The position numbers and the translations under genes are program-made. Of a stretch of DNA of 64,000 bases, positions 29,083 through 51,246 are shown in pieces. Source of the DNA: Anaerolineae bacterium (GTDB lineage: Bacteria; Chloroflexota; Anaerolineae; Aggregatilineales; Phototrophicaceae); NCBI GenBank assembly GCA_022822545.1, contig JAJEBE010000003.1:1-64000 (forward strand). The letters are read 5' to 3'. Below the pieces are notes generated by a model that was given only the letters and a program-made list of their open reading frames with translations, ran no database searches and was not told where the DNA came from. Position 1 is the stretch's first letter; every line of letters begins with the position of its first letter.

Positions 29083-29134
29083 AGGGTTTTGCGTACCATG
29101 CTCGTCTCCCTTTTGACGCGAAAGATTTACGAGC

Positions 29135-29260
29135 TAAGTCTCAGGCAGGCATTCGGACTTCTGGCTGCTGGCCAGTTACCGCTGCGCGACAGTGTCGGAC
29201 TTTCACCGACTTCCCCATTTACGCGTCCGACATCCGGGTTCAGACGCGCCTGAGTCTTAG
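29135..29260 (-). promoter_or_regulatory. Cobalamin (B12) riboswitch aptamer
   Basis: Read on the minus strand, an 11-bp closing stem (AAGACTCAGGC with GCCTGAGACTT) encloses the class hallmarks: GGGAAGTCGGTGAAAGTCCG, then ACACTGTCGCGCAGCGG, then the B12-box region AAGTCCGAATGCCTGCC. Size (about 125 bases) and order fit the classical AdoCbl aptamer. It controls btuF-btuC-btuD-cobO through the terminator downstream: high adenosylcobalamin should shut off uptake. Confidence 0.95.
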
Positions 29261-29302
29261 AATATGTAAGTCATGCAAGCCTAACACGGCTGGCGCGGTA
29301 TG

Positions 29303-49090: not shown

Positions 49091-49819
49091 TCAGGCAGAG
49101 ATTATGGTGCCGACGGCGGTATCGCCTCGCAGCGCTTTCACCAGGTCCTCCGGGTTCCAGAAGTCCAGCACGATGATGGGCATGGCGTTTTCCTGGCAGA
49201 GGGTGAAGGCAGTGGTGTCCATCACGCGCAACTGTTGATCGAGCACTTGCTGGTAATCCAGCTTGCTGTAGCGGGCGGCGTCGCGGTTCTTCAGCGGGTC
49301 AGCCGAATAGACGCCATCAACCTTGGTCGCTTTCACGATGACATCGGCATGGATTTCGCTGGCGCGCAAGGCGGCCGCGGAATCGGTCGTGAAATAGGGG
49401 CTGCCAATACCGCCGGTCAGGATGACGACGCGGCCTTTTTCCATGTGGCGGATGGCGCGCAGCCGGATGTAGGGCTCGGCGATGGAATTCATTTCGACGG
49501 CGGTTTGAACTCGTGTCACGATGCCGAGGCGTTCGATGGCGTCTTGCAGCGCCAGGCCATTCATGACAGTGGCGATCATGCCCATGTGGTCGGCCGTGCT
49601 GCGGTCCATGCCCAACTTCGCCGCCGGCTCGCCCCGCCACAAGTTGCCGCCGCCGATGACGATAGCGACCTGTATGCCCAAGTCATGAACTTCGCGCACG
49701 CGTTGGGCGATATAGGCCGCCATTTCCGGGTCAATGCCGACGCCGCTGCCACCGGCCAGCGCCTCGCCGCTAAGCTTCAACAAGACACGTCTGTAAGGCA
49801 GGCTGCCATTCGCGCTCAT
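49091..49819 (-). CDS. pyrH: UMP kinase
   Basis: A 242-residue bacterial UMP kinase (amino-acid kinase fold), which converts UMP to UDP. VLLKLSGEALAGGSG is the phosphate-binding start, IVIGGGNLWRG and DHMGMIATVMNGLAL the UMP site, and TGGIGSPYFTTDSAAALRA and KATKVDGVYSADP the conserved core. AGGGAGA just upstream fixes the ATG at 49819; nine extra codons are possible but unsupported. In many bacteria the order is rpsB-tsf-pyrH-frr. Here a MerB-like gene interrupts tsf and pyrH, and frr does not follow. Confidence 0.96.
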   Translation of the reverse strand: MSANGSLPYRRVLLKLSGEALAGGSGVGIDPEMAAYIAQRVREVHDLGIQVAIVIGGGNLWRGEPAAKLGMDRSTADHMGMIATVMNGLALQDAIERLGIVTRVQTAVEMNSIAEPYIRLRAIRHMEKGRVVILTGGIGSPYFTTDSAAALRASEIHADVIVKATKVDGVYSADPLKNRDAARYSKLDYQQVLDQQLRVMDTTAFTLCQENAMPIIVLDFWNPEDLVKALRGDTAVGTIISA

Positions 49820-49873
49820 TGTTTCTCCCTGGTTAGTTGTCTCCATCGTTTACGATCAAGCGCCGGCGCGCAA

Positions 49874-50560
49874 TCACGCGGGCGGGGCCAGCCAGAACTC
49901 GCCGGTTAATCCCAGCGCGCGAAAGATCGATTGCGCTTCCGCGGAAGACTTGCCGCGGTAGGCGGGCGACATCCGGTCGTGATACCAGCGCCTCGCCAGC
50001 GCCCATACTTGCGACAAGCTTAGCACCGCGCCTCGATTTTGACCGACACGTCGGCGCCATTTGTCAATCTCGTTTTCCGACCGGAAAAGCAAAATATTGG
50101 CTCAAGTATCTACAATATCGTCATACCATTGGCGAAAAGGATGGGCGAAATGCACAAGTCGGTCCTCACTATTTTGCAGCTCCCCGCCGGCGATGCGGTA
50201 GCGCATGGCCTCCTCGCCCAGGGGATGGCGCGCCTCGATTTGCGCGTCGCAATTCAGCATCGCCGGGATGCCCAGGGAATCCCAGGCGCAGTTGGCGTAT
50301 AGCGCCACATCGTCGATAATGACGCGATAATCGGTCGGCGTTGCCGAAAGCGGATGCGCCATCAAGATTTCATCGCTCCCCGCCTGGAGTACGAGGGCAT
50401 GCGCGTCGTGCAGCCGCCGCAGCGCATGCCGGGCGTCCGGCAGGGAAAGCCCGAAGCGCTCGGCAAGCATTGCCAAGGATGGCGCGGCGCCCGTCGCGAT
50501 GAGAGTCTCATACACGAAGAGACGAATCTGCCAATCGCTGTCTCGCGTAGTCACAGCCAT
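49874..50560 (-). CDS. MerB-like (alkylmercury lyase family) protein, probable selenoprotein with in-frame TGA at Sec153
   Basis: A 228-residue reading with one in-frame TGA at 50104-50102. Both halves match one family without any frame change: a winged-helix N-terminus (LAMLAERFGLSLPDARHALR), ILMAHPLSATPTDYRV, ANCAWDSLGIP, then DDIVDT-TGA-ANILLFRSENEIDKW, LSLSQVWALARRWYHDR and ALGLTGEFW. Relatives have Cys at the TGA position. Cys91, Asp94 and residue 153 reproduce the spacing of MerB Cys96-Asp99-Cys159, so TGA most likely encodes selenocysteine in the active site. A SECIS-like hairpin follows. MerB cleaves carbon-mercury bonds; this subfamily is not proven to. The ATG at 50560 lies five bases after a terminator T-tract and has no ribosome site, so the start and expression are uncertain. 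A nonsense-mutated pseudogene is the alternative. Confidence 0.72.
50071..50104 (-). promoter_or_regulatory. SECIS-like hairpin immediately after the in-frame TGA
   Basis: On the minus strand, 13 bases after TGA, stem TTTTCC/GGAAAA closes on the tetraloop GGTC, with a weaker helix extension below an internal loop. The loop begins 19 bases after the TGA and opens with GG then T. In E. coli fdhF the loop GGUC starts 18 bases after UGA. Bacterial SECIS elements need a G in the first two loop bases and 16-37 bases of distance, and both hold here. Confidence 0.7.
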
Positions 50561-50564
50561 ACAC

Positions 50565-50591
50565 AAAAAAGGATTAGCCGATAACTAATCC
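50565..50591 (-). terminator. Intrinsic terminator between tsf and the MerB-like gene
   Basis: The 7-bp stem GGATTAG/CTAATCC with a 7-base loop is followed by six T on the minus strand, 50 bases after the tsf stop. The T-tract ends five bases before the ATG of the MerB-like gene. Confidence 0.85.
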
Positions 50592-50640
50592 TTTGATCGT
50601 CCAGTCTCGCCTTTGTCAGGCATATCAGGCGCTTGAATAA

Positions 50641-51246
50641 TTAGGCTCCGTCGCCGATGGCGAAGCGCTGAAAGCGGCCGATGTTAATCGTCTCGCCCAC
50701 TTCGGCGACCGTCTCCTGCAGGTACTGGGTTATGGTTTTGTCATCGTCCTTGATGAAGGACTGCTCCATCAAAACGATCTCTTCGTACCACTTGTTCATG
50801 CGCCCGGACACGATCTTTTCCGCGATGTGTTCCGGCTTGCCTTCATCCAGGGCGCGCTGCATCTGCCGCTCGGTTTCCGAGGCGACTTGCGCTTCCGGCA
50901 CATCTTCGCGCTTGACATATTGCGGATTCATATTGGCGATGTGCATGGCGATATCTTTGGCGAAGGCCTTGAATTGATCGGTGGCGGCGACGAAGTCGGT
51001 CTCGCAATTGACTTCGACGATGACCGCCAGTCGCTGGTCAAAATGGACGTAATTGCCTATGACGCCCTCGTTGGCGCTACGCCCTTTGCCTTGCAGTTTG
51101 ATGCCGTCCTTCAGCGCCTTTTCCCGCAAGAATTCCGCCGCCGCGTCGATGTCGCCGTCGTGCTCCACAAGCGCATTTTTGCAGTCGAGCGGACCGGCGC
51201 CTGTGATTTCTCGCAGCGCTTTCACCTCTTTTGCTTTTACTGCCAT
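50641..51246 (-). CDS. tsf: Elongation factor Ts, short form
   Basis: A 201-residue nucleotide-exchange factor for EF-Tu. The N-terminal UBA-like helix is VKALREITGAGPLDCKNALVE and the core has NYVHFDQRLAVIVEVNCETDFVA, the TDFV motif that displaces Mg/GDP. The protein lacks the second half of the core seen in E. coli EF-Ts (283 residues), as in Thermus and other short types. AGGAG before the ATG at 51246 fixes the start. It follows rpsB by 46 bases and is followed by an intrinsic terminator. Confidence 0.96.
   Translation of the reverse strand: MAVKAKEVKALREITGAGPLDCKNALVEHDGDIDAAAEFLREKALKDGIKLQGKGRSANEGVIGNYVHFDQRLAVIVEVNCETDFVAATDQFKAFAKDIAMHIANMNPQYVKREDVPEAQVASETERQMQRALDEGKPEHIAEKIVSGRMNKWYEEIVLMEQSFIKDDDKTITQYLQETVAEVGETINIGRFQRFAIGDGA

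What the first reader, a model, noticed from the sequence alone, without database searches (positions are those of the whole stretch)
49874..50560. Probable new selenoprotein: MerB-like enzyme with TGA at the second catalytic cysteine
Seen: one in-frame TGA (50104-50102) joins two halves of a single MerB-like family protein with no frame change. Upstream is DDIVDT, downstream ANILLFRSENEIDKW, and both are conserved in relatives, which I recall as having Cys at that place. Residues Cys91, Asp94 and Sec153 match the spacing of MerB Cys96-Asp99-Cys159 (3 and 62 versus 3 and 63). A hairpin with loop GGTC begins 19 bases after the TGA; in fdhF it is 18. Inference: UGA is read as selenocysteine, giving an active site with a selenol, the strongest mercury-binding group in biology. 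A standard annotation would split it into two fragments.
Basis: partly seen in the sequence, partly recalled or inferred. Interest (0 to 1): 0.93.

Follow-up and report, generated by a model that had tools for sequence, protein, structure and literature searches.

The report
Selenium-armed organomercury-lyase enzyme family
A bacterial gene that annotation cuts short at a TGA codon very likely makes one selenium-containing protein built like the organomercury-cleaving enzyme MerB; the same TGA, followed by the same kind of RNA hairpin, is kept in relatives from six bacterial phyla, so a family of likely mercury-detoxifying enzymes has probably been overlooked.

The parts
49874..50560 (-). Read-through CDS of the MerB-fold selenoprotein, 228 codons incl. 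one UGA (predicted Sec), final stop TGA 49876-49874
50102..50104 (-). In-frame TGA, predicted selenocysteine 153, aligned to MerB Cys159
50073..50088 (-). SECIS-like hairpin in the coding sequence, upper stem around loop GGUC (50082-50079), 19 nt after the UGA
50288..50290 (-). Cys91 codon, aligned to MerB Cys96
50279..50281 (-). Asp94 codon, aligned to MerB Asp99
50568..50594 (-). Terminator-like hairpin with T-run just before the ATG
   Evidence: 12 pairs; but 3 terminator-like sites in the region against 2.7 expected by chance
50641..51246 (-). tsf (elongation factor Ts), upstream neighbour
   Evidence: TIGR00116 184 bits, cut-off 104
49091..49846 (-). pyrH (UMP kinase), downstream neighbour; ends in TGA used as a stop
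   Evidence: TIGR02075 311.5 bits, cut-off 243.9

Best explanation
The gene very likely encodes a selenoprotein of the MerB fold in which the in-frame UGA is predicted to be read as selenocysteine at the place of MerB's mercury ligand Cys159, giving an active site of Cys91, Asp94 and Sec153 that would cleave carbon-metal bonds, most probably of organomercurials. Step 1 (strongly supported by sequence): SelB would bind the coding-sequence hairpin with the GGUC loop, 19 nt after the UGA, and deliver Sec-tRNA(Sec). Step 2 (supported by sequence and predicted fold): the product is one 228-residue protein with an N-terminal winged-helix-like part and the MerB catalytic core. Step 3 (inferred from MerB): Cys91 and the Sec153 selenolate bind the metal of R-Hg+, Asp94 handles the proton, R-H leaves, and Hg(II) is passed to cellular thiols or selenols. 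The selenolate would speed capture and protonolysis. The physiological substrate and the fate of the metal are unknown.
Against: No protein evidence. Immediate neighbours are not mer genes (tsf, rpsB, pyrH), and no MerA reaches cut-off in the genome (best 340.6 against 454.45); merR, merT and merP were not searched for. The protein fails the curated cut-offs of both MerB models (57.6 of 193; 41.1 of 200). Hairpin stability in the window is not exceptional (z -1.43). In 9 of 60 rows the 36-nt MFE fold is not the GGUC hairpin. Seven further rows have another hairpin, loop GUGA, which is locally weak (-4.3 to -6.2 kcal/mol) and appears in the 36-nt MFE in only 2 of the 7. selA is common in this class (315 of 396 genomes over cut-off), so its presence alone says little there. 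One of the 19 omega pairs is 0.94 downstream (L058/L063).
Confidence: 0.8

Rival explanations
1. It is a selenoprotein, but not an organomercury lyase: the MerB fold with Sec works on another substrate (another organometal, a metalloid, a redox or sensing role, helped by the N-terminal winged-helix-like part).
For: No mer gene among the window's immediate neighbours or among the ten neighbours scanned from nine other loci, three of which had no Pfam match; fails MerB cut-offs; no MerA over cut-off; the N-terminal 65 residues align with LexA and MntR-type winged helices.
Against: All three catalytic positions of MerB are kept in exact register, with Sec in one of them; canonical MerB also has the N-terminal part (alignment to 5c17 spans model residues 3-198); 895 genomes with a MerB homologue but no MerA are reported for ordinary MerB (PMC8261052, passages).
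Confidence: 0.35
2. The TGA is a real stop: a decayed gene, a sequencing error, or a functional 152-residue truncated protein.
For: Gene callers predict only the ~150-residue fragment (of the 118 short hits among the 120 listed, 116 end in the Thr that precedes the TGA). Decay does happen in this gene: G080 and G085 hold broken remnants.
Against: TGA at the same codon in all 49 homologues L048-L096; downstream half kept (median omega 0.29) and matching MerB; hairpin covariation; the truncated form would lack the second metal ligand.
Confidence: 0.03
3. UGA is read as another residue (Trp, Gly or Cys) by a reassigned or suppressor tRNA.
For: P0046, a JGI-sourced relative, has Trp in this column, which may be a TGA translated with another code table by the pipeline (not checked).
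Against: tRNA-Sec with anticodon TCA and selA, selB and selD in the genome; TGA ends pyrH and this gene itself; the window hairpin fits the published bSECIS model; other relatives have Cys there.
Confidence: 0.02

Closest known systems
SaoL, MerB-like organometallic lyase selenoprotein (NCBIfam NF040728; Haft and Gwadz 2023, known here only through the review PMC13188914)
   Same: MerB fold with one Sec; listed motif 'CU'. The local match of our protein runs to SaoL model position 146 of 159 at our residue 140, which would put our Sec near its last position, so the Sec may sit at the same place (inferred).
   Different: Scores 38.5 of a 140-bit cut-off; here the residue before Sec is Thr in the window, not Cys; the protein continues 75 residues after the Sec; neighbours in the window are tsf and pyrH; found in Chloroflexota, Acidobacteriota, Gemmatimonadota and others. 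No SaoL sequence could be fetched, so a direct alignment was not made.
MerB, organomercurial lyase (NF009710, NF033555; PDB 3f0o, 1s6l, MerB2 5c17)
   Same: Fold; the Cys96 and Asp99 equivalents; metal-ligand position 159.
   Different: Cys159 is replaced by predicted Sec, Cys117 is not kept in the window protein, the immediate neighbours are not mer genes, and the score is far below both curated cut-offs.
Bacterial selenoproteins such as formate dehydrogenase FdhF
   Same: In-frame UGA plus a coding-sequence hairpin with a G at the loop start about 19-20 nt downstream (fdhF spacing recalled, not tested).
   Different: Unrelated protein family and chemistry (recalled).

Membership tests
Bacterial selenoprotein | In-frame UGA conserved in homologues or aligned with Cys | tested here: met
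   window plus 49 of 49 loci TGA; Cys in P0047, L128, L129 and the 13 actinobacterial relatives read of 31; Trp in P0046
Bacterial selenoprotein | Sec machinery in the genome (selA, selB, selC, selD) | tested here: met
   all over cut-off
Bacterial selenoprotein | bSECIS: loop 3-9 nt, upper stem 4-16 bp, G in the first two loop positions, spacing 16-37 nt, MFE <= -7.5 (criteria from PMC13188914, passages) | tested here: met
   window: loop GGUC 4 nt, stem 6 bp, spacing 19 nt, -8.4 kcal/mol; across A5, 45 of 60 rows show the GGUC hairpin at or below -7.5
Bacterial selenoprotein | Selenium or Sec detected in the protein | not testable with these tools
   needs mass spectrometry or 75Se labelling
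MerB (organomercurial lyase) | MerB domain PF03243 | tested here: met
   99.5 bits, gathering score 27
MerB (organomercurial lyase) | Curated MerB score (NCBIfam) | tested here: not met
   NF009710 57.6 of 193; NF033555 41.1 of 200
MerB (organomercurial lyase) | Cys96 and Asp99 | tested here: met
   Cys91 and Asp94 in register with 1s6l
MerB (organomercurial lyase) | Cys at 159 | tested here: not met
   UGA, predicted Sec, in register
MerB (organomercurial lyase) | MerB fold | tested here: met
MerB (organomercurial lyase) | Organomercury protonolysis activity | not testable with these tools
   needs enzyme assay
SaoL | NF040728 equivalog score | tested here: not met
   38.5 of 140; L085 scores 64.2, L092 55.1, L130 43.2, L080 42.9
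SaoL | Other SAO operon genes (saoB, saoC, saoP, saoT ...) nearby | not tested
   immediate neighbours in the window are tsf, rpsB and pyrH; the genome was not searched for SAO genes

The most novel reading that the evidence does not exclude
A large, widespread and perhaps ancient MerB-fold selenoenzyme family outside the mer operon detoxifies environmental organomercury in mostly uncultured bacteria, and one branch of it has replaced BOTH mercury ligands (Cys96 and Cys159) by selenocysteine, making a diselenolate organometal lyase (L130, L141, L142: two in-frame TGAs each, each TGA with its own SECIS-like hairpin, Asp99 turned into Glu).
Probability: 0.5. Interest if true: 0.88.

Novelty: new variant of a known kind. 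Interest (0 to 1): 0.77.

Why it matters
A family whose genes are cut short at the UGA is easily missed by surveys that read annotated proteins and ask for Cys159. One such survey (PMC8261052; 84,032 genomes) screened for Cys96, Asp99, Cys117 and Cys159, lists 0 Acidobacteria, 7 Chloroflexi and 1 Gemmatimonadetes genome with MerB, and has no occurrence of 'seleno' (passages). If these enzymes cleave methylmercury, a share of natural demethylation capacity is invisible today. It also tests a clean chemical idea: whether evolution used selenium's affinity for mercury inside a mercury-cleaving active site, at one ligand or, in the double-TGA branch, at both.

Tried and rejected
Sequencing error, decay, a truncated functional protein, and a reassigned UGA were considered and judged very unlikely (see rivals). 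Folding stability as evidence was dropped (z -1.43). selA co-occurrence was tested and is weak evidence. In the window's family 34 of 34 genomes with the full-length TGA gene have selA over cut-off against 40 of the other 64, but 29 of the 34 are one genus. In the class, 36 of 38 genomes with a TGA-bearing match have a strong selA (E < 1e-130), G219 has E 5e-61 and G452 only E 1e-11, against 315 of 396 over cut-off overall (I read the TGA column in only part of these 38). Among 21 genomes holding L075-L080 and L082-L096, 18 are over cut-off, one is partial (G108, 208 bits) and two have none (G111, G112; their merB-like genes lie on contigs of about 4.3 kb, so binning or completeness may be at fault); three of the 21 look like genomes already counted (G099, G101, G102). 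No base rate was measured for those other phyla. A search scored on residues 145-228 alone found nothing at E <= 0.001 among 24 candidates. A functional operon was looked for in ten neighbours from nine loci (three without any Pfam match) and in four neighbours of the double-TGA genes and not found; the neighbours of the other loci were only clustered by BLAST, not named. Searches for papers: (listings). No paper describing this family or a double-Sec MerB was seen in them; SaoL's own paper and Haft and Tolstoy 2025 are not held, so they could contain it. Papers were seen as passages only: PMC13188914, PMC9312934, PMC2398784, PMC8261052, PMC4525700, PMC8763373, PMC11639659.

Full report
OBSERVATION. 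On the minus strand, 50560-49874 is one frame with a single in-frame TGA at 50104-50102. Read through, it is 228 residues. PF03243 (MerB) scores 99.5 bits over residues 71-193 read through, 58.7 on the upstream half and 25.0 (just under its gathering score of 27) on the downstream half. The neighbours are tsf and rpsB upstream and pyrH downstream. pyrH ends in TGA, so TGA is a stop elsewhere in the genome.

MACHINERY. The window's genome (4.27 Mb, 94.9% complete) has tRNA-Sec (70.7 bits; ARAGORN calls SeC, anticodon TCA), selA (559.3 bits), selB (342.9 bits) and selD (375.5 bits), each over its cut-off. selD itself carries an in-frame TGA.

CONSERVATION. Of 98 genomes of the same family, 43 have a match. 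34 of these hold the gene at full length with one TGA (one, G065, also has a TAG near the C-terminus), G031 has a relative with two TGAs, two have only broken pieces (G080, G085), and six have relatives without a stop. In 30 of 30 loci read, the TGA is at the same codon. In named genome contigs, all 49 loci L048-L096, and the window, have exactly one TGA, at that codon; many are the same genomes as. By record title they are Chloroflexota, Acidobacteriota, Gemmatimonadota, Actinomycetota (L089, L093), KSB1 and Marinimicrobia, at 38-83% identity to the window. Nearly all are metagenome-assembled, so single titles may be wrong. Of the 31 actinobacterial relatives L097-L127 I read 13; all have Cys there, 12 of them as Cys-Cys (by eye). 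Cys also stands in P0047, L128 and L129, and Trp in P0046. In a tree of 66 rows, 51 Sec rows and 3 Cys rows form one side against 12 Cys rows (100/99), with 3 changes of the label needed; several long branches make the exact placing of the Cys rows and of L130 unsure.

ANNOTATION BLIND SPOT. Of 385 database hits, the best 120 were listed; 118 are 180 residues or shorter, and 116 of these end in the Thr that precedes the TGA (one of them is the window's own fragment). A search scored on residues 145-228 alone found no hit at E <= 0.001.

SELECTION. Median omega is 0.23 for the 152 codons before and 0.29 for the 75 codons after the TGA (19 usable pairs of 20; 0.27 downstream without codons 154-166; one pair reaches 0.94 downstream). 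The downstream half is not decaying.

HAIRPIN. Of the 67 hairpin rows compared (alignments A3 and A5), 60 have loop GGUC at a fixed distance and 7 have GUGA. In the 60 GGUC rows (A5) 99.0% of cells pair. The outer pair 18-31 occurs as CG 50, GC 4, UA 4 and AU 2, pair 21-28 as CG 58 and UA 2, and pair 22-27 as CG 59 and AU 1; pair 19-30 fails in 3 of 60 rows, and pair 20-29 never varies. No shuffle of 500 reaches the covariation score (18 of 500 reach the count of pair types), and slid structures fall to 41-63% paired. A sixth pair, 17-32, tested on the first 43 rows, fails in 13. The outer pair joins the third base of codon 158 to the first base of codon 163, so the residue at 163 follows the pairing. 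Codons F159 (TTC 50 of 50), S161 (TCG in all 43 rows with Ser) and R160 (CGG 43, CGT 7) rank 1, 2 and 4 in synonymous conservation among 46 columns. The window hairpin meets the four bSECIS criteria of the 2026 review (PMC13188914, passages). Against: z is only -1.43; in 9 of 60 rows the 36-nt MFE is a different fold, and 45 of 60 show the GGUC hairpin at <= -7.5 kcal/mol. In the seven GUGA rows the local hairpin with a bulged base is weak (-4.3 to -6.2 kcal/mol) and is part of the 36-nt MFE in 2 of 7 (L069, L074); its loop begins with G then U at the same distance. A broken remnant in G080 has the loop changed to GGAC.

MECHANISM (inferred). MerB cleaves Hg-C with Cys96, Cys159 and Asp99 in its active site (PMC4525700, passages). 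Here one ligand would be a selenolate. [quoted passage not shown] No MerA over cut-off is in the genome, so the released metal would go to thiols or selenols. Genomes with MerB but no MerA are known (895 in PMC8261052, passages).

KNOWN OR NEW. The 2026 review lists one MerB-like selenoprotein, SaoL (motif CU); an earlier review lists an alkylmercury lyase MerB-like selenoprotein with the same accession (PMC9312934). Our protein scores 38.5 of the 140-bit SaoL cut-off and fails both MerB models; L080, L085, L092, L130, L128, P0047 and the actinobacterial L101 also fail all three. So it is best read as a second, separate and broader MerB-fold selenoprotein family. Whether its Sec and SaoL's Sec are one inherited trait could not be tested.

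SIDE FINDING: DOUBLE SEC. L130 (G031) has two in-frame TGAs, at the Cys96 and the Cys159 columns, and Glu for Asp99. A class-wide search (396 genomes) found two more with both TGAs, L141 (58%) and L142 (52%), from two other families of the class. The first TGA is followed by a hairpin whose loop holds GU about 19 nt downstream (for L130 z -1.29), the second by the same CTTCCGGTCGGAAG hairpin. G031, G360 and G286 have selA. L130 and L141 match PF03243 (80.3 and 79.2 bits); L142 was not scanned, and its frame runs on into a stretch that matches an AAA ATPase domain.

CONFIDENCE. Sec decoding about 0.97; MerB fold and active-site register about 0.97; organomercury or organometal cleavage as the function about 0.6. 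The overall figure of 0.8 lies between these.

Noticed in passing
L130:805-1464, L141:1501-2160, L142:1501-2160(-): MerB-fold relatives with TGA at both metal-ligand positions (Cys96 and Cys159), Asp99 replaced by Glu, each TGA followed by its own SECIS-like hairpin: a candidate double selenoprotein.
   Followed up: partly
L067, L069-L074 (alignment A3): In one clade the GGUC hairpin is replaced by one with loop GUGA and a bulged base, and Ser161 becomes Glu; a natural switch of hairpin type within one family.
   Followed up: partly
L128 and L129: Cys forms in which the Asp99 position is also Cys (NCAWC ... YTC), in genomes that have selA.
   Followed up: no
L149:1906-1959: A second in-frame TGA right after the conserved Trp168, a place where many relatives have Cys; only a weak hairpin follows.
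   Followed up: no
L142 / L162:3550-4626(-): The double-TGA frame of G286 runs on without a stop into a stretch matching an AAA ATPase domain: a possible fusion.
   Followed up: no
L131 (G080) and L132 (G085): Broken remnants of the gene, followed by a pyrH-like frame, with the Cys91 region deleted; in G080 the loop reads GGAC.
   Followed up: partly
window 50568-50594 (-): Terminator-like hairpin whose stem ends 7 bases before the ATG, likely the tsf terminator; how the gene is transcribed past it is unclear.
   Followed up: no
window codon 139 (50146-50144): Ala139 is GCC in 42 of 46 rows with Ala (rank 3 for synonymous conservation), 14 codons before the TGA, without explanation.
   Followed up: no
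L017:1531-1533: The genome's selD has an in-frame TGA near its start, so SelD is probably itself a selenoprotein.
   Followed up: no
window 29127-29268 (-): Cobalamin riboswitch, 65.2 bits.
   Followed up: no
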